A stretch of 49,505 nt of DNA from Bacteroidota bacterium (GTDB taxonomy: Bacteria > Bacteroidota > Ignavibacteria > Ignavibacteriales > Melioribacteraceae), in NCBI GenBank assembly GCA_021812705.1, contig JAKAMT010000004.1, positions 1 to 49,505 of the forward strand. Direction: 5' to 3'. The notes below the pieces were generated by a model. That model saw only the letters and a list, made by a program, of their open reading frames with translations, ran no database searches and was not told the DNA's origin. Below are positions 20,961 to 33,910 of this stretch, one piece after another. The stretch's first letter is position 1. Every line of letters begins with the position of its first letter. The translations under genes were made by a program, and so were the position numbers.

Positions 20961-22184
20961 TTATGTAATATTTTCTGATTTCATCAGAATAATTTTGAAT
21001 GTTGTACCCTCATTTAGAACGGAATTTTTTACGAAAATTTTGCCATTGTGATAATCTTCCACAATTCTTTTAGACAGGCTCAATCCTAATCCCCATCCTC
21101 TCCTTTTAGTGCTGTAACCGGGACGGAAAATATCCTTTCTTCTTCCGCTCTCAATTCCTTTCCCGTTGTCAGTTACTTCAATTTCAATCTGTCTGTGTTT
21201 TTCTTCCACGGAAAATTTAATTATGCCGTCATTTCTTTCAATTGCATCCAGAGCATTCTTAATTAAATTTTCAACGACCCATTCAAAAAGATCTCCGTTC
21301 AATTTTGCCTGCAGTTCTTTACTGCCTTCGACGCTTATGTTCACATTCTTGCCTAACTGAGGAAGCCTTCTTTGAAAATAATTAATAACTTTCTCTATAG
21401 CTAAATAGGGTGAATCGTCTTTTAGCTCAGGCTTTGAGCCTATCTTTGAAAAACGGTTTGTAATCTTATTAAGCCGCGTCAAATCTCCGTCTATCTCTTC
21501 CGATATATCAAGGACTTTATCCGGATCGGAGTAGCTGAGTTTGAGCATCTCATTCCACCCCATCAGGCTGGATATTGGTGTCCCCAGCTGATGTGCGGTT
21601 TCCTTTGACATGCCGACCCAGATATTGCTGTGTTCACTCTTCTTGATGTAGCTGAAACTCAGATAGGCAATTAGCAGAAAAAGGAGAGCGAAAATTATCT
21701 GCAGATACGGATAATATTTCAGGCGCGTAACTATATCTGAATCGCCGTAATAAATTTTCTGAAAAACCTTTCCATTGGGAAGTTTAATTTCGATAGGTGA
21801 GTGTTCCGATTCCAGCGATCTGAGTTTGTCCGTTAAAAATTTTTTCAGTTCGGTTAGAGATATTCCCGGCTTATGTTCAATATTTTTATATCCGCTTCCT
21901 TCGGCAGTCGCTGTTACATTTCCCTCGCCGTCGGTTAGTATTAGAGGAAAATCTATTCTTTGAATGATATTCTGAAAAATGAAAGTCAGGTCGGAATTTG
22001 GAGATTCCGTATTAGCTACATACTCCAAGCTGCTTGCGTAGAGTTTTACTATTTCTGTTTCACGCTGTTGAAGTTTTGATACTAAATTTTGTGTATAATA
22101 AAGAGTGCCGATAGCAATTGCTGCCCCGATGACCACCAAGCTTAGCTTAATATTCATAGAAGCCGGACCGCCGGACATTTTCAT
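20961..22184 (-). CDS. Membrane-bound sensor histidine kinase
   Basis: The 407-residue protein has a membrane span at about 12-30, an extracytoplasmic sensor region (about 31-158), a second span at about 160-180 and a cytoplasmic kinase core. The H-box is SKETAHQLGTPISSLMGW with His 198. The ATPase domain has the N-box ENLIKNALDAI, DNGKGI and FRPGYSTKRRGWGLGLSL. It should autophosphorylate and pass phosphate to a response regulator. No full regulator gene is adjacent; the receiver-only protein at 33533 is a possible partner only by neighbourhood. GGAGA stands before the ATG at 22184. It is downstream of purA (78-base gap) in a STAS-purA-kinase set. Confidence 0.94.
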   Translation of the reverse strand: MKMSGGPASMNIKLSLVVIGAAIAIGTLYYTQNLVSKLQQRETEIVKLYASSLEYVANTESPNSDLTFIFQNIIQRIDFPLILTDGEGNVTATAEGSGYKNIEHKPGISLTELKKFLTDKLRSLESEHSPIEIKLPNGKVFQKIYYGDSDIVTRLKYYPYLQIIFALLFLLIAYLSFSYIKKSEHSNIWVGMSKETAHQLGTPISSLMGWNEMLKLSYSDPDKVLDISEEIDGDLTRLNKITNRFSKIGSKPELKDDSPYLAIEKVINYFQRRLPQLGKNVNISVEGSKELQAKLNGDLFEWVVENLIKNALDAIERNDGIIKFSVEEKHRQIEIEVTDNGKGIESGRRKDIFRPGYSTKRRGWGLGLSLSKRIVEDYHNGKIFVKNSVLNEGTTFKIILMKSENIT

Positions 22185-23600: not shown

Positions 23601-23939
23601 TTATTTAAAACTTTCTACAGCATCATCTACAGAAGTAAAGTGCTCAAAAATGGTAATTAACTTCGTAATCACCAGCAGGCTTTCTATCTTTTCAGTAGCG
23701 TTGGCCAATTTCATAACGCCGCCGCCGTTTTTAACAGTCGTATAACCGCTGATAAGCATGCCAAGGCCAGAGCTGTTCATAAATTTGGTTTCTGCGAGAT
23801 CAATAATTACATTTTTTTTCCCTTCATCGAGTAATTTATGAAGAAGATCGCTGAACTCCTGTGCTTCTGGACCGCCCATCACATTTCCCTTTAATTCAAC
23901 TACAACAGCCCCGTACTTTTCTACCTGTTTTACCTTCAT
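23601..23939 (-). CDS. STAS-domain anti-sigma factor antagonist (SpoIIAA/RsbV-like)
   Basis: A 112-residue single STAS domain. It has VVVELKGNVMGG at the start, the IIDLAETKFMNSSGLGMLI core with the phospho-acceptor serine motif NSSGLG (Ser 56/57), and the final amphipathic helices. Proteins of this type bind an RsbW-like kinase when unphosphorylated and release its target; phosphorylation by the kinase turns them off and a SpoIIE-type phosphatase restores them. It is divergent from the ECF sigma gene, whose operon encodes a matching kinase and three phosphatases. AGGAG lies before the ATG at 23939. A TATAATTG box at 23990-23997 is a possible -10 element, without a good -35. Confidence 0.94.
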   Translation of the reverse strand: MKVKQVEKYGAVVVELKGNVMGGPEAQEFSDLLHKLLDEGKKNVIIDLAETKFMNSSGLGMLISGYTTVKNGGGVMKLANATEKIESLLVITKLITIFEHFTSVDDAVESFK

Positions 23940-24106
23940 AGATTCTCCTCAAGTTTTATTTTAAAGTTAATTATCGTTTTTCTTTAATTCAATTATAAGA
24001 TAAAATAAAGAGATAAAAATGGATATAATCATTCACAAATAATTATATTGGCAGTTAAATTATTGAATAGAAAAGTAAAAAGAAAGTTAATTTAAGCCTC
24101 GGCGTT

Positions 24107-24136
24107 TTGTGATTTGATCCGTGTAAATCATAATTT
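24107..24136 (+). promoter_or_regulatory. Candidate promoter of the sigma-factor operon with a dyad in its spacer
   Basis: TTGTGA (24107-24112) and TAATTT (24131-24136) are 18 bases apart. Within this stretch TGATTT (24110-24115) and AAATCA (24125-24130) form a perfect inverted repeat with nine bases between, an operator-like dyad. Transcription would begin about 30 bases before the sigma gene. A second candidate, TGGATA-18-TATATT, lies near 24028-24057. Neither is proven. Confidence 0.35.
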
Positions 24137-24173
24137 TTAGAGGAACAATAAACAGGTATCCCCGTCTAAAAGC

Positions 24174-24776
24174 ATGGAATTCGGAAAAGAAAAAGAACAA
24201 TTTGATCCACTCGCTCCCCAAGAGGAAAAAGATGAAGATTTTTCTCTTATAAGAAAATTTATTGATGGGGAAGAGTCAAATTTCAGACTTTTGGTTTATA
24301 AGCATAAAGATAAGGTGAGAAATCTGGTGTTCCTCACTTTAGGCGATACCGAGTTTGTGGATGATATTTCTCAGGACGTATTCATTAGCGTTTACCATAA
24401 ACTTAACGAATTCAGATTTGAATCCAAGTTTACTACTTGGCTTTACAGAATTACAGTTAATAAATGCAGGGATTATTTAAGAAAGAAAAGAGTTAGAAGC
24501 ATCTTTGTCCCTATTAAAGATTCCGATACAGATTATGGGACCGGTCCGTTTTCTGAGGATATTGATATTCCTAATCTGGTAAGAAAATCGATCGATAAAT
24601 TACCCGAAAAACTTAGAATACCGTTAGTGCTTAGAGACATTGACGGATTAAGCTACAAAGAGATCGCGGATCAGCTGGGAACGGAAGTGGGGACAATTAA
24701 ATCAAGAATTTTCCGAGCCCGTGAAAGTTTAAAAATCATTCTTGAACCGTATCAAAAAGAGTTGAGAGCCAGTTAA
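24174..24776 (+). CDS. ECF-type RNA polymerase sigma factor
   Basis: The 200-residue protein has a sigma-2 region at about 30-105 (FRLLVYKHKDKVRNL, DISQDVFISVYHKL, FTTWLYRITVNKCRDYLRK) and a sigma-4 helix-turn-helix at about 140-195 (LPEKLRIPLVLRDIDG, YKEIADQLGTEVGTIKSRI). Sigma-3 is absent, as in ECF factors. An acidic 25-residue N-terminal extension precedes sigma-2. ECF factors redirect RNA polymerase to stress or envelope genes. It heads a seven-gene partner-switching operon. No zinc-type anti-sigma gene follows. The next gene encodes an unrecognised membrane protein two bases after the stop. The ribosome binding site at this ATG is weak, which suggests low or controlled translation. Confidence 0.95.
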   Translation: MEFGKEKEQFDPLAPQEEKDEDFSLIRKFIDGEESNFRLLVYKHKDKVRNLVFLTLGDTEFVDDISQDVFISVYHKLNEFRFESKFTTWLYRITVNKCRDYLRKKRVRSIFVPIKDSDTDYGTGPFSEDIDIPNLVRKSIDKLPEKLRIPLVLRDIDGLSYKEIADQLGTEVGTIKSRIFRARESLKIILEPYQKELRAS

Positions 24777-24778
24777 AG

Positions 24779-26047
24779 ATGGAACAGCCGAAAAGAAAAT
24801 TTCTCAGAACCGCAGCTCTGAGAAAATATATTCCTTTTGCTGTCCTCGGAATTTTAACGGTATTGCTGATGGTCTTCTTCAAAGAGAGGAATGAGGGAAT
24901 TTCGAAAATTTTTGAGGAGGGAAAAACTAATGTACTCTCATTCTACGCCGAAAATTTAAAACCTCTCATTTTTCAGACAACCATTTCTCAGGAAGATATT
25001 TTCAATTTTGCTCTTTTCAACAGCCTTCCGCTGGATAAAGACAAAAATAAAATTCTCGAAATATCCCACGATCAAACAGGTAGGGAAACTTTTGTAATAA
25101 GAACAGCCCCCTATAACCGAGATACTAAAAATTACGACACCTTTGTTAAGTATATTGGGATGAATAGGGACCAGAAACAAAAAATAGACTCGATTCTTAA
25201 CTCATACAAAAAAGATATTTATTCATCGGTGCTTCTTAACGAAAAAAATACATACGCTGTAAACCCGAATATTACAGATCTTCAGCAGGCGGTGCTTGCA
25301 GATATAATCTCTTACACGCAAAGCATCGATAAAAATAAATCAAATGAAAAATTTGCGGAATATTTCAGCACACGCGACGAGAGCAGACTTGCCGGATTGA
25401 TCGGATCTGCGAAAAAAATCAGCAAGGATGAATATCTGTTAATTACTCCCGATACTGTTGCCAGAACCTATTTCAAGTGGGACCAGAAAAATTTTGATAA
25501 AAATTATAACGACTTGGAAAGAAAGAAGATAAACATGCTGCCCCCGCTGCCTGAATTTAAAATTGAATACGAACATCCGAAATCATGGACGAATAATGTG
25601 AGCGGAGTTCATAAAGAAAATTTCTCTTTTAACATCGACACAAATTACATGAAAGTTGTGATCCCGGTTGAGGGTTTTAATCTTTCTGCGGCTGTCCAGG
25701 AAAGTTTGAGAGTGAAATTGGGCGAAGCGGCAAAAAAACTAAAAAGTATCAGATTTAAAATGGAAAAGATGTCCGGAAATATGAAACGCAAACAGGCCGC
25801 TTCCACCGGAGAACCAGAAGAGATCATCAATCCGTTCGAATTGGCAAATCAGGCTCTGCAATTCTTTTCAGGCGGAAAAGAATGGAGCAATTTGGGCGGC
25901 AAAATAGATTCTTTGTCCCGGCTTATAACTCCCAGTATGAAGGACTCGATAAAAAATGAGATCCGGAGGGAGATAAGAAGGGCCGCCAATGAAATAAAAA
26001 ATGCAAAACTGAAGGAAAGATCAGACTCTCTGCGGCTGAAAAAATAA
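24779..26047 (+). CDS. Single-span membrane protein of unknown function, next to the ECF sigma gene
   Basis: I do not recognise this 422-residue protein. It has a short basic N-terminus (about 17 residues), one membrane span (about 18-36) and a long, probably periplasmic part. A segment near 125-150 (YIGMNRDQKQKIDSILN) looks like the LTxxQ-type helices of Spy/CpxP periplasmic stress proteins; this is a weak likeness. The region 270-320 looks like beta structure and the last 60 residues are a charged, helical stretch rich in Lys and Arg. The cytoplasmic tail seems too short for a normal anti-sigma domain. Its start is two bases from the sigma stop, so the two are probably made together. It could be the envelope sensor of the operon. 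That is inference. Confidence 0.75.
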   Translation: MEQPKRKFLRTAALRKYIPFAVLGILTVLLMVFFKERNEGISKIFEEGKTNVLSFYAENLKPLIFQTTISQEDIFNFALFNSLPLDKDKNKILEISHDQTGRETFVIRTAPYNRDTKNYDTFVKYIGMNRDQKQKIDSILNSYKKDIYSSVLLNEKNTYAVNPNITDLQQAVLADIISYTQSIDKNKSNEKFAEYFSTRDESRLAGLIGSAKKISKDEYLLITPDTVARTYFKWDQKNFDKNYNDLERKKINMLPPLPEFKIEYEHPKSWTNNVSGVHKENFSFNIDTNYMKVVIPVEGFNLSAAVQESLRVKLGEAAKKLKSIRFKMEKMSGNMKRKQAASTGEPEEIINPFELANQALQFFSGGKEWSNLGGKIDSLSRLITPSMKDSIKNEIRREIRRAANEIKNAKLKERSDSLRLKK

Positions 26048-26081
26048 ACCTTATAATTTTACGCTTATAGGCTTAAACGCG

Positions 26082-28124
26082 ATGCGAAAGAAAGTTAAAA
26101 ATATTACAAACAGTCACAGATTGGAAAATGCAGTATTATTATCTGTGCTGCTTTTCCTTTTCAATCTTTTGTTCCCCCAGCACGATTCTATTATTCTTTT
26201 TATCTGTGCGGAAATAATTCTCTTTTTTACACTTTTCTTTCTTTATAATTATGTCCACACCTATATCAGTTCTAAAGTTGATTCTCCGCTCGGCATTGTG
26301 CTTAACGCCGGTATTCTTGGAGCGCTGATATTCTTCATAACCGCAACACTTAATGCAATCTTAAGTTCCAAGTCGGAAACTGTAGCTCCCGGATTTTTTA
26401 ATTCTCTCTTTTCCATCCTTCTTAATTTTGTTTTTATCGGTTCGGTTATTTACATTTTTTCTACCTTTAGAGAGCTCTCATTTTTACGTCAGAAGAAAGA
26501 TCCATCTGTTTATTTCAACACCCTGCTGGTCTATTTCGGATTAAGTTTTTTTTCCGACGCTTTTATTAAAATATTCACCGATGCCTCATTTGTAAAAACT
26601 GCGGTATACGTGATGACCATAATTCTTATTTCGCTCAATTCGGTAAGAGTATCTTGGATTGCTTTTCTTCCCAAGAAACAAAAATACTATCTTCTCCTTA
26701 CTTCGGTAATCCTTTCTGTCCTTTTTGGAATGAATTACGCGATGATAACAAATACAAACGTAATCAGGCAGATTATTTATCTCTTCTCGCCGGGATTTCA
26801 TACATTTTTTAATCTTGTGATGCTCTACGGAACAATCTATTTCGCCGTTATATTCTTCACTGCACTGTTTCATCTGCCTACCGCCGAAGCGTTCGACAGG
26901 AGGACGGATGAAGTTTCATCCATGATGGATCTTACAAAACTTGTAGCTCAGGTTTTCGATTTCAAGGAGCTGGCGGAAACAATCACCACGATTACAGCAC
27001 GGGTCTGCAGCGCGGATAGCGCCTGGCTTATTACAAAAAATGGGAACGAAATTGAATTAAGTTCTGTGAACAATATCGGATTTGTTGATGCCGATAATAT
27101 TACAAATAAAATTTTTGGATCGGGTGCGAATAATTTTGATTCGATTGAGATCATCGATTATCGCTCGCTCGTGCAGTCTGAAATTAATAATCGTCCCAAT
27201 TTTGCATGGATAGCCGTTGCTCCGTTAAAAGTGCAGGGAATTATAAACGGTTATCTGCTCGCTGCCCGTTACCGTGAAAATATTTTTGATCTGGATGACA
27301 AGAGAGCCGTGCAGGCATTTGCTGATTATGCCGCGGTCGCGCTGGAAAATGCTAAGCTGATAGGCGAATCTATTGAAAAAGAGAGACTGGAAAAAGAATT
27401 GGATGTTGCCCGCGATGTGCAGAGAAAAATCCTGCCCAGCGTAATTCCTGTTTCAGACCGGCTTCAAATCTCTGCCCTCTTTGTACCCGCTTTTGAAGTA
27501 GGCGGCGACTATTATGATTTCTTCGAATTGGATGGCGACCGGCTTGGTTTTGTTATAGCCGATGTTTCTGGAAAGGGAATCGGTTCGGCATTCATAATGG
27601 CAGAAGTAAAAGGAATTTTTGAATCCCTTTCGAAAATAATTTCGAATCCGAGGGAACTGCTGATAAATGTAAATGACAATCTCAAAAAAAGTTTGGATAA
27701 GAAAAATTTTGTGACTGCTATTTATGGTGTAATAAATAAGGAGACGGGAGTTCTCAATTTTGCGAGGGCGGGGCATACACCGGTGCATATCTTCTCGAAT
27801 GGTAAAACGGAACGGTATCAGCCGGCGGGTATCGGTCTCGGACTCGACTACAGAACGGGCTTTGAGTCCTCTATAAAAGAATTGGAAATTCAACTCAAGA
27901 ATAATGATATTGTAATTTGTTATTCTGATGGTATTCCCGAGGCGAAAAATAACTTGGAAGAAGACTTCGGTTACGACAGACTAGATTCTATTGTTGCCGC
28001 AAATTTTGAGAAGGGATTGGACCAGATATCTAATGAGATCATGAAATCTCTCACCGTCTTCTCAAAAAATCATTCGCAGCATGACGATATCACTTTAGTA
28101 GTCTTTAAATGGAATAAAAAATAA
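26082..28124 (+). CDS. Membrane-GAF-SpoIIE serine phosphatase (PP2C type)
   Basis: The 680-residue protein has an N-terminal membrane domain of about seven to eight spans (15-270), a GAF domain (about 285-435), a short coiled linker (EKERLEKELDVARDVQRKILP) and a SpoIIE/PP2C phosphatase domain (about 455-677). The metal-binding aspartates are present in GGDYYD (474-479), ADVSGKG, CYSDGIPEA and HDDITLVVF. The family removes phosphate from serine of STAS proteins and so releases their kinase partner. The next gene encodes a STAS protein, its likely substrate. The start codon ATG at 26082 follows the previous stop by 34 bases. The GAF ligand and the signal sensed by the membrane part are unknown. 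Confidence 0.93.
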   Translation: MRKKVKNITNSHRLENAVLLSVLLFLFNLLFPQHDSIILFICAEIILFFTLFFLYNYVHTYISSKVDSPLGIVLNAGILGALIFFITATLNAILSSKSETVAPGFFNSLFSILLNFVFIGSVIYIFSTFRELSFLRQKKDPSVYFNTLLVYFGLSFFSDAFIKIFTDASFVKTAVYVMTIILISLNSVRVSWIAFLPKKQKYYLLLTSVILSVLFGMNYAMITNTNVIRQIIYLFSPGFHTFFNLVMLYGTIYFAVIFFTALFHLPTAEAFDRRTDEVSSMMDLTKLVAQVFDFKELAETITTITARVCSADSAWLITKNGNEIELSSVNNIGFVDADNITNKIFGSGANNFDSIEIIDYRSLVQSEINNRPNFAWIAVAPLKVQGIINGYLLAARYRENIFDLDDKRAVQAFADYAAVALENAKLIGESIEKERLEKELDVARDVQRKILPSVIPVSDRLQISALFVPAFEVGGDYYDFFELDGDRLGFVIADVSGKGIGSAFIMAEVKGIFESLSKIISNPRELLINVNDNLKKSLDKKNFVTAIYGVINKETGVLNFARAGHTPVHIFSNGKTERYQPAGIGLGLDYRTGFESSIKELEIQLKNNDIVICYSDGIPEAKNNLEEDFGYDRLDSIVAANFEKGLDQISNEIMKSLTVFSKNHSQHDDITLVVFKWNKK

Positions 28125-28145
28125 TTAATAAATCGGGAGATGTTA

Positions 28146-28499
28146 ATGGCGGAATTTAATGTCGACTTGCGGCCTGTCGGTTCCGTAAGCGTGATAGATG
28201 TTAAAGGGTATCTTGATGCCCATACTGCGCCTGAGCTTGAGAATGTGTTCAACAAATTGCTCGATGAAAAAAGGTTCAAAGTTGTGGTTAATTTTGACGA
28301 GCTCAAATACATCAGCAGCGCGGGACTCGGAGTGTTTATGGCTTATGTAGAAACAATGAGGGAAAACAAGGGAGATATCAAATTTTCCAACATGAAAGAG
28401 AATGTCTACAACATTTTCGATCTGCTGGGATTTCCTATTCTATACGAATTTTTTAAAGATGAAAGAGAAGCTCTTCAGAAATTTGATACCCTGGGTTAA
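28146..28499 (+). CDS. STAS-domain anti-sigma factor antagonist
   Basis: A 117-residue STAS protein with VSVIDVKGYLDAHTAPELEN and the phospho-acceptor region LKYISSAGLGVFMAY (Ser 57/58). It should alternate between free and phosphorylated forms under the action of the RsbW-like kinase encoded next and the SpoIIE phosphatases on either side. The start at 28146 is chosen because GGGAG lies six bases upstream; an in-frame ATG at 28140 touches that site directly and is unlikely. The stop is two bases before the kinase gene, the classical spoIIAA-spoIIAB or rsbV-rsbW order. Confidence 0.94.
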   Translation: MAEFNVDLRPVGSVSVIDVKGYLDAHTAPELENVFNKLLDEKRFKVVVNFDELKYISSAGLGVFMAYVETMRENKGDIKFSNMKENVYNIFDLLGFPILYEFFKDEREALQKFDTLG

Positions 28500-28501
28500 A
28501 A

Positions 28502-28936
28502 TTGAATTCTGCCAATTACATATTTGAAAAAGATCTTTCCGTTAAAAGCACAACCGACAATCTTGCTTTGATACGGGAATTTACCCGCTCTTCTGCCGCG
28601 GAATGCGGATTTTCAGAGGAAACCGTAGGAAAAATTATTCTAGCCGTTGATGAGGCTTGTACGAATATCATTAAACATGCTTATAAATATTCCCCCGATG
28701 GCAATATCACTATTAATATAAAATTTGATCAGAAAAAATTTAACATCTCAATTACAGACGAAGGAATTCATTTCGATCCTTCCAGAGTTCCGGAACCGGA
28801 TCTGGTTGAATATTACAAACAAAAACGCGCCGGCGGACTGGGCGTTTTCCTTATTAAAAAACTGATGGATGAGGTGAAGTATTCCACTCTTTCCGGAAAT
28901 AAAAACCAAGTTGTTTTAGTTAAATATCTCTCCTAA
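28502..28936 (+). CDS. RsbW/SpoIIAB-like anti-sigma serine kinase (GHKL ATPase)
   Basis: The 144-residue protein is a stand-alone HATPase_c domain of the anti-sigma kinase group. The N-box is AVDEACTNIIKHAY with Glu 51 and Asn 55, the G1 box is ITDEGIHFDP with Asp 86, and the G2 box is GGLGVFLIKKLMDEV. The Glu that activates the attacking serine is kept, so kinase activity is expected. The only start in reach is TTG at 28502, two bases after the STAS stop and without its own ribosome binding site, so translation is likely coupled. Its target may be the ECF sigma factor, but RsbW-type kinases normally bind sigma-B/F-type factors or other proteins, so this is open. Confidence 0.93.
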   Translation: MNSANYIFEKDLSVKSTTDNLALIREFTRSSAAECGFSEETVGKIILAVDEACTNIIKHAYKYSPDGNITINIKFDQKKFNISITDEGIHFDPSRVPEPDLVEYYKQKRAGGLGVFLIKKLMDEVKYSTLSGNKNQVVLVKYLS

Positions 28937-28941
28937 TTGTT

Positions 28942-30621
28942 ATGATACAATTAGATAAAAATTCAGCATTAAGAAATTTTTCCGCGCTTGTCGATTTCAG
29001 CAATCTTATAAATTCCACTCTCGACTTAAATTTTACTCTCAATAATATTCTGCTCACCTGCTTCGGCAAATTTCATACGACAAAAGGTTTGATAGCTCTT
29101 CTGAATGAGGAAAATGCCTTTGAAGTGAAAGTGTTCAAAGGTATAAATGCTGAAATTGTTAAAAATTTCCCGAGGCTTGATTCGTCAAATTATTCGTCTG
29201 ACGGAAAATTAGTTGAGTTCATAGAAAAAAATAATTTTCCGGTTATTCAGGAAATTAAATCTTCGGAAGGGCTTAAAGGATTCATTATTCTCGGCCCCAG
29301 ACTCACTTCCGCGCCCTACGATGAAGACGACATCAATTTTTTGAAGACAATACTCAACGTCGGTTCCACCGCAATAGAAAACTCCATTGTGGTGGAAAAA
29401 CTTAAAAAAGCAAACCGCAATCTTGATGCGAAGGTCAATCAGCTCAGTTCTCTTTTCGATCTGAGCAAGGAATTCAGCGGGATACTTCAAATTGAGATGG
29501 TGAGTAAAATGCTTGTCTATTCGTTGATTGGGCAGATGCTCGTCTCTAAGTATGCCGTGGTTTCCTGCGCGGGGAAAATTCTTACACTCCTCGAAAACCG
29601 CTTCGAAGAAACCCATCTCAAATCAATTTTGAAGGAATGCAATTCTTCCGACTTCCAGAAACCATTGGCGAGAAACGAGATCATTCAAAAATTGAAACCT
29701 TTTTCTGATTTAGGCATAGATCTCATTGTTCCGATGCAGATCAAAGGTGAAACCAAGGGATTGATCCTGCTGGGAAAAAGAAAAAATGAGATGATTTATT
29801 CTCAGTCGGATATTGAGTTTGTATCGTCGGTGGGAAGTCTCGCAATAATTTCTATAGAGAATGCCAGACTTTTCAATGAAACTCTGGAAAAACAGCGTTT
29901 GGAAAAAGATCTCGAAACGGCCAGGAATATTCAGAATAATCTTCTGCCTAAATCAATGCCCGCCCTTTCAAATTTTGAAATTGCTGCTTTTAACAAATCT
30001 GCAAGAATGGTTGGCGGCGATTATTATGATATTGTTAAACTGGATGAACACAGAGTCCTCTTTGCTATTGCAGATGTTTCTGGAAAGGGAGTGCCGGCGG
30101 CACTTTTAATGGCAAATATCCAGGCTTTTTTGAAAACAATTTGCAAGATGAAACTCGGTCTCGTTGAAGCCACAAGCCTGATGAATGATCTTGTCGCAGA
30201 AAATACAACCATGGGAAGCTTCATCACTTTTTTCTGGGGAATCATTGATGATGAAAAGATAGAACTCTCTTATGTGAATGCCGGTCATAATCCTCCTCTC
30301 CTTGTAAGAAAAGGGGAGATAACAAAATTGAAAAAGGGGGGAATGATACTTGGAGTTATGCCGACAGTTGTTCCATATCTCTCGGAAACAATTCAAATGC
30401 AGCGCGGAGATGCGCTGATTTTATTCACCGACGGCATTACAGAGGCTATGAACCAGAAATGGGAAGAGTATTCGGATGAACGTTTGGAGAACCTGGCGCG
30501 TCAAAAATATAAAGAGAGTTCGCAAAATATTCTTTCGCACATAAAATTCAGCGTGGAAGACTTTACTCACGGAGCCGAACAGTCTGACGATATAACATGT
30601 TTGGTTATAAAGGTAAATTGA
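28942..30621 (+). CDS. GAF-GAF-SpoIIE serine phosphatase, soluble
   Basis: A 559-residue cytoplasmic protein without membrane spans. Two GAF-like domains (about 15-155 and 170-315) are followed by a helical linker (EKQRLEKDLETARNIQNNLLP) and a SpoIIE/PP2C domain (about 340-558). Metal-binding aspartates are in GGDYYD (358-363), ADVSGKG, LFTDGITEA and SDDITCLVI. It starts five bases after the RsbW-like gene and ends one base before the next phosphatase gene. The GAF domains suggest that it reports a cytoplasmic signal or a small ligand to the same STAS proteins. The second GAF has only a loose match and could be a degenerate copy. Confidence 0.92.
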   Translation: MIQLDKNSALRNFSALVDFSNLINSTLDLNFTLNNILLTCFGKFHTTKGLIALLNEENAFEVKVFKGINAEIVKNFPRLDSSNYSSDGKLVEFIEKNNFPVIQEIKSSEGLKGFIILGPRLTSAPYDEDDINFLKTILNVGSTAIENSIVVEKLKKANRNLDAKVNQLSSLFDLSKEFSGILQIEMVSKMLVYSLIGQMLVSKYAVVSCAGKILTLLENRFEETHLKSILKECNSSDFQKPLARNEIIQKLKPFSDLGIDLIVPMQIKGETKGLILLGKRKNEMIYSQSDIEFVSSVGSLAIISIENARLFNETLEKQRLEKDLETARNIQNNLLPKSMPALSNFEIAAFNKSARMVGGDYYDIVKLDEHRVLFAIADVSGKGVPAALLMANIQAFLKTICKMKLGLVEATSLMNDLVAENTTMGSFITFFWGIIDDEKIELSYVNAGHNPPLLVRKGEITKLKKGGMILGVMPTVVPYLSETIQMQRGDALILFTDGITEAMNQKWEEYSDERLENLARQKYKESSQNILSHIKFSVEDFTHGAEQSDDITCLVIKVN

Positions 30622-30622
30622 A

Positions 30623-33187
30623 ATGAAAAAATTATTTGAAAAATTTTGGGTCAAGAATAATAAGAAGATAATTCTTTTTACTACTGTTTTTCTTCTTCTT
30701 ATCGGCTTAGCAAACTTTTTTTTCATTTTCGAAGTGACCTCGCAATCAAACGATGAATGCCTCTGGATTGAAAAGAAATCGCCTGATGGCGATTCGGTCA
30801 AGGTGATATTTGATCAGGTAAAAGTGAATGGCGTAACCTGGGAGGCGGGCATAAGAAACGGTGACCAGCTCCTTTCAATAGATGGTGTGAAACTTACAAA
30901 TAATCTGGTCGCTTCCAGAACCCTGGATAAAATCCAGGCCGGAGACTATGCGACTTACAAAGTGATTCAGAAAGGGAGGATAATAGAAGCAAAAATACTC
31001 GTCAAAAAATTGATAAATTTTTCGGGACTTGCTTTCGCGCTTCTTTCCTTCATATGGGTTATAGTTGCTTTCATTGTTGTTATGGCAAAAGTGGAAGGGA
31101 AAACTCAGCTCGCTTTTTTCAAAGTGGGTATTGCCGCAACATTATTTTCGATGACCGACATGCTCTACAGGGGTCAGCAGGTTCCAAATCCCATATTTGA
31201 AAATGCTCTCCTTCTGTTTTTTATAGACACGCTCTGGACCGTGGGCGGAATCTTCTTTCCGTTTCTTCTGGTACGCTTTTTCTCTCTGTTTCCCAGAGAA
31301 CTTAGACTCGTCGGGAAAAAATGGTTCGACGGAACTGTGGTTTACGGACCTTACATCCTTTCAGCGATAATAATGGGGTTAAAAATTTCATTCGCCAATT
31401 CCGGAAATGCGAATAAAATTTATATGGCTTCAACAAATTTTATCTCGCTGATGATAGCCGCAGGATTATTAATCGGGCTTGTATTTCTTTTTATTAATTA
31501 TGTGCGGCTCAAAACAAAACAGGAAAGAAACACAATCTTTGTAATTCTTGTGGCATATATGGTAAGTGTGGCCGCCGGTTTTTACACGATGTTCCTGGCG
31601 GCACAGATTGCCGGCGTGGTCTTTAATAATCCTTACTATTTTATGCCCATCATTCTGATCGCTCTGCTCCCGATTGCGTTTGGCTATTCCATCTTCCGTT
31701 ATTCATTGATGGATGTTAGCGAGGTCGTAAAGAATACAATTGTGTACGGTGCGGCCACTGTCGCATTGGCCGGCATCTATTTCCTGATAATTTATCTGAT
31801 AGGTCAATCTGTGAGCGCGGCGATTGGAACGGAATATCAGGGGGCAATTGCGGGCGTTGTATTCGTTTTCTTTGCCGTCCTGTTCCAATCTACAAAAGAC
31901 AGGTTTCAGGACTATCTAACCGAAAAATTTTATCCTGAACAATTCGCATTCCAGAACCGCCTTCTTACCTTCAGCAATAATATTGCAAGCGTTGTTGGAC
32001 AGGAAAATATTCTGGATTCCACGTTAAGCCTTTTTGTGAATTCTCTCAGAATAAAAACATTCGGAGTGCTTCTTAGAGAGGACGGAAATATTTATAAGCT
32101 TGTGAGGAGCCGTGGAATTTCAAATACCTGGTTCAGAATAGACGACAGAAAAAATCAGATTGAGGAATTTTTAGTGAAAAAGAATCAGCTCGGTATGAAG
32201 ATGATTATTGAGCGGCAGGATTTCCGCGCATTGTGGGAAGATGACGCAGACCGTCTTATTGTGGAAGATATTTATACTATAATTCCTCTTTTTATTAAAT
32301 CGAACGTCATTGGATTGCTTCTGTTTGGATTGAAACAGTCGGGATCACAATTTTCCGGAAAAGATACGGATCTATTAATAACGGCGGCAAATCAAGTGGC
32401 TGTTTCAATAGAGAACGCGCGGCTATATGAATCTGAAACCGAAAAGCAAAAAATGGAACGGGATCTCGAAAATGCCCGCCACATCCAGGAAACTCTTCTT
32501 CCAAAAGTATTTCCCAAAATTGAAGGAATAGATATTTCGGGAAAAATGATTCCGGCGATGCATGTGGGCGGAGATTACTTCGATCTCATAAAAATATCCG
32601 ATAAAAAAATATTTGTGGTTGTAGGAGACGTTTCCGGTAAAGGTTTGAGCGCATCATTCTATATGTCGAAACTCCAGACTATGATCAGGCTCTACTGCAC
32701 TGATTCAAAATCGCCGCGGCAGGTACTTATTGATGTGAATAAAAACATTCATGAAAATATTGAAAAGGGATGGTTTATCACTGTTTCTCTTGCGCTGTTT
32801 GATCTGGATGAGAGAAAAGTTACAATATGCCGCGCCGGCCATCCGGCTGTAATAAGAGTGAGAAATAAAAATGTAGAATCGTTTACACCCGGAGGAATTG
32901 GAGTCGGGCTTGACAAAGGGGAGCTTTTTGCCTCCTCTCTGGAAGAAGTTTCAATGAAGGTTGAAAAAGATGATCTGTTTTTCTTTTACTCAGACGGCGT
33001 TACGGAACTGATGGATTCATCAAAATTATTTTACGGCGAGGATCGTCTGAGTAAATTACTTACGGAAAATTCGGATAAAGACTGCAGACAAATTGAAGCT
33101 GCCCTGATGAATGAGCTGGATGAATTCCGCGGTAAAGTGCCGCAGTATGACGACATTACCATTTTGACGATTAAAATAGTCTCGTAA
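30623..33187 (+). CDS. PDZ-membrane-GAF-SpoIIE serine phosphatase
   Basis: An 854-residue protein. A span at about 14-37 is followed by a PDZ-like domain (about 60-132; NGVTWEAGIRNGDQLLSIDG), placed by topology in the periplasm. Seven or eight further spans (about 134-405), a GAF domain (about 435-595), a helical linker and a SpoIIE/PP2C domain (about 615-853) complete it. Metal ligands are in GGDYFD (649-654), GDVSGKG, FYSDGVTEL and YDDITILTI. A PDZ in front of this architecture suggests sensing of a peptide or protein end outside the membrane, similar in idea to DegS/RseP-type sensors. That is inference. It is the last gene of the operon. Confidence 0.92.
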   Translation: MKKLFEKFWVKNNKKIILFTTVFLLLIGLANFFFIFEVTSQSNDECLWIEKKSPDGDSVKVIFDQVKVNGVTWEAGIRNGDQLLSIDGVKLTNNLVASRTLDKIQAGDYATYKVIQKGRIIEAKILVKKLINFSGLAFALLSFIWVIVAFIVVMAKVEGKTQLAFFKVGIAATLFSMTDMLYRGQQVPNPIFENALLLFFIDTLWTVGGIFFPFLLVRFFSLFPRELRLVGKKWFDGTVVYGPYILSAIIMGLKISFANSGNANKIYMASTNFISLMIAAGLLIGLVFLFINYVRLKTKQERNTIFVILVAYMVSVAAGFYTMFLAAQIAGVVFNNPYYFMPIILIALLPIAFGYSIFRYSLMDVSEVVKNTIVYGAATVALAGIYFLIIYLIGQSVSAAIGTEYQGAIAGVVFVFFAVLFQSTKDRFQDYLTEKFYPEQFAFQNRLLTFSNNIASVVGQENILDSTLSLFVNSLRIKTFGVLLREDGNIYKLVRSRGISNTWFRIDDRKNQIEEFLVKKNQLGMKMIIERQDFRALWEDDADRLIVEDIYTIIPLFIKSNVIGLLLFGLKQSGSQFSGKDTDLLITAANQVAVSIENARLYESETEKQKMERDLENARHIQETLLPKVFPKIEGIDISGKMIPAMHVGGDYFDLIKISDKKIFVVVGDVSGKGLSASFYMSKLQTMIRLYCTDSKSPRQVLIDVNKNIHENIEKGWFITVSLALFDLDERKVTICRAGHPAVIRVRNKNVESFTPGGIGVGLDKGELFASSLEEVSMKVEKDDLFFFYSDGVTELMDSSKLFYGEDRLSKLLTENSDKDCRQIEAALMNELDEFRGKVPQYDDITILTIKIVS

Positions 33188-33532
33188 AAAAATAATTTTT
33201 AAGTTTTACGCTTTCTTTTAATTTTTTTATACTATTTACTTCTGAAATTTTCATTTCAATTACATCCCTTATTATACAGAGCACACGTTTTTATGAAAAG
33301 CATGCTATGTTAGTCCGGTTCGAGATTCAAAAGGATCCGTTTTATACTTCGTTGGCGGTTAAAATATTCCGAAGCCGGTCAACTGAACCCGATTTATCAT
33401 TAAATTACTTTGTTGGACTCAGTATACTGGTTTGATAAAATATATTGTATTTGTATTGGTGTAAAATTAACTTAAGACGCGTGATTCCTGTGACTCCAGT
33501 CCGCAATTTCTAAAAATGCGTAGAGGAAATTA
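33188..33532. other. Gap between the phosphatase operon and the response regulator gene
   Basis: About 345 AT-rich bases with no credible gene. No strong terminator follows the phosphatase gene. A TTGGACT...TATACT pair near 33413-33429 is too closely spaced for a promoter. GAGGAAATTA directly before 33533 is a good ribosome binding site for the regulator gene. A piece near 33311-33329 contains GGTTCGAGATTC, which recalls a tRNA T-arm, but no other tRNA arm is there. Confidence 0.6.
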
Positions 33533-33910
33533 ATGGACAGAAAAAAAAATCTTGCCATTCTTGAAGATGATCCTGCAATACTTGAGATATTCAAACGGGT
33601 TTTAAGAAATGATGCCGAGGTGTATACTTGCGGCAGTGTAGCGGATTTTGAAAATATCTTATCCAAAACCGAGATGGATCTGTTTGTAATAGATCTGGCA
33701 TTGGGGGACAAGAAAGATGGTCTTCAAGTGATCCAAGAATTGCGTGCTTCCGATAAATATAAATCAACTCCTATAATTGTTGTTACCGCCCACGCATTTC
33801 ATTCAGATGAAAACAATGCTGTTGCTGCAGGCGCCAACAGATTTCTGCGCAAACCCGTAGAGAATATTGTGCTTCTGCATACTGTGAAGGATCTTCTGTC
33901 TCTAGAGTGA
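33533..33910 (+). CDS. Receiver-only response regulator
   Basis: The 125-residue protein is one CheY-like receiver domain and nothing else. The acidic pocket is ILEDDPA (Glu 11, Asp 12, Asp 13), the phospho-acceptor is Asp 54 in LFVIDLALG, Thr 85 is in IIVVTAHAF and Lys 107 in FLRKPVE. It therefore should act by binding another protein rather than DNA. It lies 345 bases after the phosphatase operon and has its own ribosome binding site, so it is probably separately transcribed. The membrane kinase at 20961-22184 is the only histidine kinase in the window, but pairing the two is inference. A bidirectional terminator follows. Confidence 0.95.
   Translation: MDRKKNLAILEDDPAILEIFKRVLRNDAEVYTCGSVADFENILSKTEMDLFVIDLALGDKKDGLQVIQELRASDKYKSTPIIVVTAHAFHSDENNAVAAGANRFLRKPVENIVLLHTVKDLLSLE

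What the first reader, a model, noticed from the sequence alone, without database searches (positions are those of the whole stretch)
23601..33910. Partner-switching cluster around an ECF sigma factor with three differently equipped SpoIIE phosphatases
Sequence shows, in order: STAS (divergent), ECF sigma, unknown membrane protein, membrane-GAF-SpoIIE, STAS, RsbW-like kinase, GAF-GAF-SpoIIE, PDZ-membrane-GAF-SpoIIE, then a lone receiver. All three phosphatases keep their metal aspartates and both STAS proteins keep the serine motif. From knowledge of RsbV/RsbW/RsbU and SpoIIAA/AB/E, one kinase and two STAS proteins with three phosphatases would combine a periplasmic, a membrane and a cytoplasmic input. 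RsbW-type kinases usually hold sigma-B/F-type factors; here the only sigma factor is ECF type, so either the kinase has a new target or the output is not transcription.
Basis: partly seen in the sequence, partly recalled or inferred. Interest (0 to 1): 0.75.

Follow-up and report, generated by a model that had tools for sequence, protein, structure and literature searches.

The report
Sigma switch that swapped its brake
In this group of bacteria a stress-type gene switch seems to have lost the brake domain that its relatives use and to sit instead in one operon with a second, unrelated kind of brake, so it may be a case of one control system taking over another's job.

Summary
The genes are as described, except that the lone receiver (33533-33910) does not belong. 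The order purA<STAS1< >ECF>UNK>PP1>STAS2>RsbW>PP2(>PP3) recurs across an order: through PP2 in 45 of 45, 5 of 5 and 33 of 39 testable loci of three families.

The 'unknown membrane protein' is what remains of the ECF factor's own anti-sigma factor. In loci from other orders (20 of 20) and in family f3 (55 of 55) it carries an RsiW/RseA-like cytosolic domain. In families f1 (this window) and f2 that domain is gone (0 of 74), and 12 of those 74 lack the whole gene. In 13 genomes of other orders the ECF pair and the partner-switch quartet are separate loci. Here they form one operon behind the ECF factor's own GGAAC-N16-CGTC promoter.

Best reading (0.5): RsbW took over restraint of the ECF factor. 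Binding is not shown. Against: RsbW also occurs without this ECF, and no wider ECF regulon was found. [quoted passage not shown]

The parts
23601..23939 (-). STAS1, divergent anti-sigma-antagonist-like protein (KFMNSSGLGMLI serine motif)
   Evidence: PF01740 E=8e-14, TIGR00377 over cut-off; divergent beside the ECF in 56 of 57 f1, 5 of 5 f2, 11 of 12 UNK-less and 36 of 52 f3 loci
24142..24169 (+). ECF-type promoter GGAAC-N16-CGTCTAA, ending 4 nt before the ECF start codon
   Evidence: form GGAAC-N14..18-CGTC[T/A] in 74 of 93 upstream regions of ECF orthologues; GGAAC-N15..17-CGTCTA occurs once in the 3.16-Mb genome, here
24174..24776 (+). ECF sigma factor
   Evidence: PF04542, PF08281; in 16 genomes searched, orthologues score 270-345 bits against at most 121 for other ECFs
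24779..26047 (+). UNK: remnant of the membrane anti-sigma factor; one TM helix (about aa 16-34) and the outer domain kept, cytosolic anti-sigma domain absent
   Evidence: homologues with an N-terminal anti-sigma domain in f3 and other orders
26082..28124 (+). PP1: membrane domain, weak GAF, SpoIIE phosphatase
   Evidence: PF07228 E=3e-41; part of the quartet seen in other orders
28140..28499 (+). STAS2 (RsbV-like, YISSAGLG serine motif)
   Evidence: PF01740 E=1.5e-14, TIGR00377 over cut-off
28502..28936 (+). RsbW-like anti-sigma/serine kinase (TTG start)
   Evidence: PF13581 E=6.5e-31; best NCBIfam match RsbW, below its cut-off
28942..30621 (+). PP2: phosphatase with weak GAF matches and a SpoIIE domain
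   Evidence: PF07228 E=5e-47
30623..33187 (+). PP3: weak PDZ, membrane domain, GAF, SpoIIE phosphatase
   Evidence: PF07228 E=3e-40, GAF_3 over cut-off, PDZ_6 below; not seen with the quartet in 13 other-order loci

Best explanation
The operon is an autoregulated ECF sigma factor whose original brake, a single-pass membrane anti-sigma factor of the RsiW/RseA kind, has been superseded by a partner switch. Proposed cycle (inferred): RsbW holds the ECF factor while it keeps STAS2 (and perhaps STAS1) phosphorylated. Signals at PP1 (membrane), PP2 (cytosol) or PP3 (membrane, possibly envelope) lead to dephosphorylation of STAS, which binds RsbW and frees the ECF factor. The freed factor transcribes its own operon from GGAAC-N16-CGTC, amplifying the response. 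Shown by sequence: conserved linkage, a conserved promoter, and absence of the anti-sigma domain only in clades where RsbW is linked. Inferred: RsbW-ECF contact, the phosphorylation cycle, the signals, and that the ECF reads this promoter.
For: Linkage: order through PP2 in 45 of 45 f1, 5 of 5 f2, 6 of 6 UNK-less and 33 of 39 f3 loci with more than 10 kb downstream. Anti-sigma domain: 20 of 20 loci of other orders and 55 of 55 f3, but 0 of 74 f1/f2/UNK-less; one change on the ECF tree. RsbW lies downstream of the ECF in all 56 f1/f2/UNK-less loci long enough to test. The domain looks like a class-I anti-sigma domain: its profile's best PDB hit is RsiW (5wuq, E=0.0055, residues 6-78 on 6-78), zf-HC2 matches weakly, below cut-off, in 7 of 8 proteins scanned, and the Asp that I align with RseA D11 is invariant in 12 of 12 (D11 from PMC7406223). 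UNK is dispensable once the domain is gone: 12 of 74 f1/f2 loci lack it with the ECF kept, 5 changes on the tree, against 0 of 55 in f3; in those 12 the ECF lies 1-31 nt before PP1, 151 nt in one. No competing SigB/F/G sigma over cut-off: 0 of 146. An ECF that drives its own promoter and has no anti-sigma would otherwise have no restraint (inference).
Against: RsbW is older than the link: the quartet PP1-STAS2-RsbW-PP2 lies apart from the ECF pair in 12 of 13 other-order loci (the thirteenth is cut by a contig end) and persists in G095 and G103, where no ECF orthologue was found, so it must have some other target or output there. f3 keeps both brakes (RsbW downstream in 37 of 39), and one f3 genome, G112, seems to have lost the RsbW orthologue (best match 102 bits). 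At the thresholds used no RsbW residue sets the linked clade apart. Mirror-tree correlations of the ECF are not special to RsbW. No regulon beyond the ECF promoter was detected. The promoter is found in only 5 of 12 UNK-less loci. ECF factors lack sigma region 3, which SpoIIAB contacts in sigma-F (recalled). A free-standing anti-sigma domain elsewhere in the genome was not searched for.
Confidence: 0.5

Rival explanations
1. Wiring only: the ECF pair was captured upstream of the partner-switch genes and now simply drives their transcription. RsbW keeps an older, still unknown target, and the output of the switch is not this ECF factor.
For: The quartet exists without the ECF in other orders and in G095 and G103. 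No strict ECF-type promoter lies before 17 PP1 genes outside the joined operons (two of them, L284 and L291, cut by contig ends), so it comes with the link. The only site standing out in the genomes searched is the operon's own.
Against: It leaves an apparently autoregulated ECF factor with no anti-sigma domain in 74 of 74 f1/f2 loci, and does not explain why the domain is missing only where RsbW is linked.
Confidence: 0.27
2. The shortened UNK still controls the ECF factor by a new contact, for example its short cytosolic tail, and the partner switch is a parallel system.
For: UNK is kept next to the ECF in 62 of 74 f1/f2 loci.
Against: Only about 15 residues precede the TM helix in the window protein. 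UNK was lost in 12 loci, 5 changes on the tree, with the ECF kept.
Confidence: 0.08
3. A free-standing anti-sigma protein elsewhere in the genome now restrains the ECF factor.
For: Not tested beyond the fetched loci; no genome search was left for it.
Against: No match to the domain profile anywhere in the fetched f1/f2 loci, six frames (0 of 74). Class-I anti-sigma factors are usually encoded next to their ECF (general knowledge).
Confidence: 0.15

Closest known systems
SigW/RsiW and RpoE/RseA (ECF with class-I membrane anti-sigma factor)
   Same: Likely the ancestral form of the pair: ECF followed by a one-TM anti-sigma factor behind a GGAAC/CGTC promoter; the domain profile hits RsiW and keeps an Asp that aligns with RseA D11.
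   Different: In this window's clade the anti-sigma domain is missing and a partner switch lies in the same operon.
RsbU/RsbV/RsbW-SigB and SpoIIE/SpoIIAA/SpoIIAB-SigF
   Same: Kinase, STAS antagonist and PP2C-type phosphatases together with a sigma factor.
   Different: The sigma factor is ECF type without region 3; no SigB/F/G sigma over cut-off in 146 relatives; three phosphatases.
Bordetella BtrS with BtrU/BtrV/BtrW and BtrA
   Same: An ECF factor and a partner switch in one locus (PMC7498569, passages).
   Different: There a separate anti-sigma, BtrA, binds BtrS, and BtrU/V/W are reported to control secretion by a yet unknown mechanism.
Rhodobacter RbaV/RbaW/RbaY
   Same: Partner switch without a known sigma partner; two ECF factors were tried as RbaW targets (PMC3999984, passages).
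   Different: No sigma gene nearby, and the two-hybrid tests with RpoD, RpoHI and two ECFs were negative.
EcfG/NepR/PhyR of Alphaproteobacteria
   Same: A known partner-switching control of an ECF factor (PMC8103513, passages).
   Different: Uses PhyR, which mimics EcfG, and NepR; the review has no mention of SpoIIE, STAS, RsbW or RsbU.

Membership tests
ECF sigma factor | Regions 2 and 4 present, region 3 absent | tested here: met
   PF04542 and PF08281 over cut-off; no Sigma70_r3 match listed
Class-I ECF anti-sigma factor (ASDI) | N-terminal cytosolic anti-sigma domain | tested here: not met
   Absent in the window protein and in 74 of 74 f1/f2 loci; present in f3 and in the loci of other orders. 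The window protein is therefore filed as a remnant, not as a member.
Class-I ECF anti-sigma factor (ASDI) | In relatives: homology of the domain to solved anti-sigma domains, with the D11-type residue | tested here: met
   RsiW 5wuq E=0.0055, a modest value; invariant Asp in 12 of 12 aligned; zf-HC2 below cut-off in 7 of 8. No structure could be predicted.
RsbW/SpoIIAB kinase | HATPase_c_2 fold with intact ATP site | tested here: met
   PF13581 E=6.5e-31; E51, N55, D86, G88, G111, G112, G114 invariant in 40 sequences
RsbW/SpoIIAB kinase | Binds a sigma factor | not testable with these tools
   No complex prediction was on hand
RsbV/SpoIIAA antagonist | STAS fold with phosphorylatable serine | tested here: met
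   phosphorylation itself not tested
SpoIIE/RsbU phosphatase | PP2C-type domain with conserved aspartates | tested here: met
SigB/SigF partner-switch system | Group-3 SigB/F/G sigma factor as output | tested here: not met
   TIGR02980 over cut-off in 0 of 146 genomes; own region-3 sigmas are RpoD-like

The most novel reading that the evidence does not exclude
An RsbW-type kinase directly restrains an ECF sigma factor, having replaced a class-I anti-sigma factor during evolution; living relatives preserve the steps: ECF with anti-sigma domain and the switch elsewhere, both in one operon, switch only, and anti-sigma gene gone.
Probability: 0.45. Interest if true: 0.85.

Novelty: new variant of a known kind. 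Interest (0 to 1): 0.7.

Why it matters
[quoted passage not shown] If RsbW restrains this ECF factor, SpoIIE/STAS/RsbW partner switching reaches the largest family of alternative sigma factors by a new contact. The locus also offers a series of living intermediates for how one kind of anti-sigma control can replace another, with a prediction for each clade. If it does not, the locus shows an apparently autoregulated ECF factor that lives without an anti-sigma domain, which also needs explaining.

Tried and rejected
Wider regulon: the promoter pattern was searched strictly, with one mismatch and in a relaxed form. In sum, matches did not exceed the backward-pattern control (78 against 177 in 11 genomes; 113 against 146 in 7 genomes), though in the window's own genome the relaxed form gave 22 against 16. 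No regulon could be named.

ECF control of the switch in trans elsewhere: no strict ECF-type promoter before 17 PP1 genes outside the joined operons (L284 and L291 are cut by contig ends; L289 has one relaxed match overlapping its start; L288 has a strict match 105 nt before STAS1). Not supported.

RsbW loss in three f3 loci as proof of redundancy: two of the three genomes (G139, G140) carry the orthologue elsewhere; only G112 seems to have lost it. Claim dropped.

Mirror-tree test: in f1/f2 the ECF correlates with RsbW (0.53) less than with STAS2, PP1 or PP2 (0.64-0.69); in f3 RsbW is the highest (0.59, n=22) and UNK low (0.10). Inconclusive. Positions at published anti-sigma contacts (RpoE 23 and 27) are conserved in the other-order loci and variable in f1/f2, but also in f3, so they do not decide. 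The Fisher value printed used a wrong denominator, because other-order loci had been picked by UNK, and is not used.

Rows dropped before the counts: L243, L262, L272 and L274 (no ECF match). Six further rows (one f3, five other) are missing from the tree, which kept only ECF segments over 200 bits; the tree is a quick one with 46 of 140 inner branches open and some long branches. Selection: f1, f2, f3 and other-order loci were picked by a match to UNK; the 12 UNK-less loci by the ECF in the 16 relatives without UNK. Of those 16, G064, G072, G095 and G103 had no ECF orthologue.

Full report
WHAT IS THERE. ECF to PP3 lie 1-34 nt apart. Some sensor-domain calls (GAF in PP1 and PP2, PDZ in PP3) are below Pfam's cut-offs. 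The receiver gene lies 345 nt beyond PP3, and no receiver match follows the cluster in the 60 relatives laid out, some of which are cut short; I leave it out.

CONSERVATION. UNK was found in 130 of 146 relatives searched. Twelve of the 16 genomes without UNK still hold the ECF orthologue, which scores 270-345 bits against at most 121 for other ECFs; G064, G072, G095 and G103 do not. I fetched 152 loci and scored them and the window in six frames: 57 f1 (window included), 12 f1 without UNK, 5 f2, 55 f3 and 20 from other orders hold the ECF; four loci lacked an ECF match and were dropped. From contig lengths shared with record titles I infer that f1 is Melioribacteraceae and f3 Ignavibacteriaceae. 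With more than 10 kb downstream, the order UNK-PP1-STAS2-RsbW-PP2 (without UNK in the UNK-less group) holds in 45 of 45 f1, 5 of 5 f2, 6 of 6 UNK-less and 33 of 39 f3 loci; with PP3 as well in 37, 5, 6 and 30. STAS1 lies divergently beside the ECF in 56 of 57, 5 of 5, 11 of 12 and 36 of 52.

THE UNKNOWN PROTEIN. In the loci from other orders and in f3 the homologues start with about 80-120 residues before the TM helix (start codons not curated); in f1 and f2 the TM helix begins about 5-27 residues from the N-terminus (loci L041-L124 and the window). A profile of the extra domain (12 sequences, A3) finds RsiW, the SigW anti-sigma factor, as its best PDB match (5wuq, E=0.0055, residues 6-78 on 6-78). 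Pfam's zf-HC2 matches weakly at the N-terminus, below its cut-off, in 7 of 8 proteins. The aspartate that I align with RseA D11, a residue a published study ties to sigma-4 contact (PMC7406223, passages), is invariant in the 12. The domain profile matches 55 of 55 f3 and 20 of 20 other-order loci and 0 of 74 f1/f2 loci. The profile was built from seven f3 and five other-order sequences, so those positives are partly built in; the 0 of 74 is the informative number. In the window the open frame begins only about 11 codons before the start codon, so no domain is hidden upstream. In the 12 UNK-less loci the ECF ends 1-31 nt before PP1 (151 nt in one). On a quick tree of 143 ECF sequences the domain changes state once, UNK presence five times (all inside f1), and RsbW linkage four times.

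TWO MODULES. An RsbW orthologue (157 bits or more, against at most 102 for other RsbW-like proteins) is present in 13 of 13 other-order genomes queried (four families), away from the ECF pair. There it lies in a quartet PP1-STAS2-RsbW-PP2 with no PP3, ECF or UNK match: four genes in 12 of 13, the thirteenth cut by a contig end. In f3 genomes G103 and G095 the cluster STAS1<>PP1...PP3 lacks ECF and UNK, and no ECF orthologue was found elsewhere. In a class-wide sample UNK was found in 108 of 294 genomes; RsbW matches as strong as those orthologues also occur in families without a UNK match, for example f14 and f20. So the ECF pair and the quartet look like older, separate units that were joined in this order. 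f3 mostly keeps both brakes; the f1/f2 side lost the anti-sigma domain, and parts of f1 lost the whole anti-sigma gene.

PROMOTER. GGAAC-N14..18-CGTC[T/A] lies before the ECF in 74 of 93 loci (36/45 f1, 4/4 f2, 12/12 f3, 17/20 other, 5/12 UNK-less); a k-mer scan against shuffled sequence had pointed to it. In f1, f2 and f3 the CGTCT mostly ends 3-7 nt before the start codon, so the message would be nearly leaderless. In the window's genome the pattern occurs once, at 24142 (backward control 3); in 11 of 12 relatives the longer form occurs at the ECF, with one extra site in one genome. Searches with one mismatch or a shorter pattern give fewer hits in sum than the backward control. No strict match lies before 17 PP1 genes outside the joined operons, two of them cut by contig ends.

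MECHANISM. Best reading: RsbW took over restraint of the ECF factor. The domain is missing only in clades where RsbW is linked, the ECF is kept, its promoter looks like its own, and no SigB/F/G-type target reaches the cut-off (0 of 146; own region-3 sigmas are two RpoD-like proteins). What is not shown: any RsbW-ECF contact, the phosphorylation cycle, or the signals. Against it: RsbW works somewhere without this ECF, linkage alone did not remove the domain in f3, the promoter is seen in only 5 of 12 UNK-less loci, and neither RsbW residues nor mirror-tree correlations single out the pair. The wiring-only rival is serious.

PRIOR ART. Nine library searches were made. 'Ignavibacteri + anti-sigma + ECF' and 'RsbW + ECF + partner-switching + Bacteroidetes' returned no papers. 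Others led to the Bordetella Btr locus, where BtrA is the ECF's anti-sigma (PMC7498569, passages), Rhodobacter RbaW, negative against two ECFs (PMC3999984, passages), and reviews (PMC8256260, PMC8103513, PMC4598750, passages). [quoted passage not shown] The 2021 paper that reclassified the ECF family (doi 10.1093/nar/gkaa1229, recalled) is not held, so I cannot say whether it notes this gene neighbourhood.

VERDICT. A real, order-wide operon. The novel part is the apparent exchange of one anti-sigma control for another; the exchange of genes is well supported, the exchange of function is a testable inference.

Noticed in passing
24142-24176: The ECF promoter's -10 element ends about 4 nt before the start codon, so the ECF message would be nearly leaderless; a similar spacing recurs in most f1, f2 and f3 loci with the site, while in other orders it is mostly longer (start codons not curated).
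   Followed up: partly
20961-22184: A membrane histidine kinase gene lies beyond purA and STAS1; a match to it is found in 49 of the 60 relatives laid out, mostly next to purA. No response regulator gene lies beside it in the window.
   Followed up: no
33533-33910: Stand-alone receiver between PP3 and secF, with no receiver match at this place in the 60 relatives laid out.
   Followed up: partly
L288, L295 (f19): In another order a STAS1 relative lies next to secF/secD, beside the unlinked PP1-STAS2-RsbW-PP2 quartet; in many f1 loci secF/secD follow the cluster, as in the window.
   Followed up: no
L278 (G103), L279 (G095): Two f3 genomes keep the partner-switch cluster with ECF and UNK absent between STAS1 and PP1.
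   Followed up: yes
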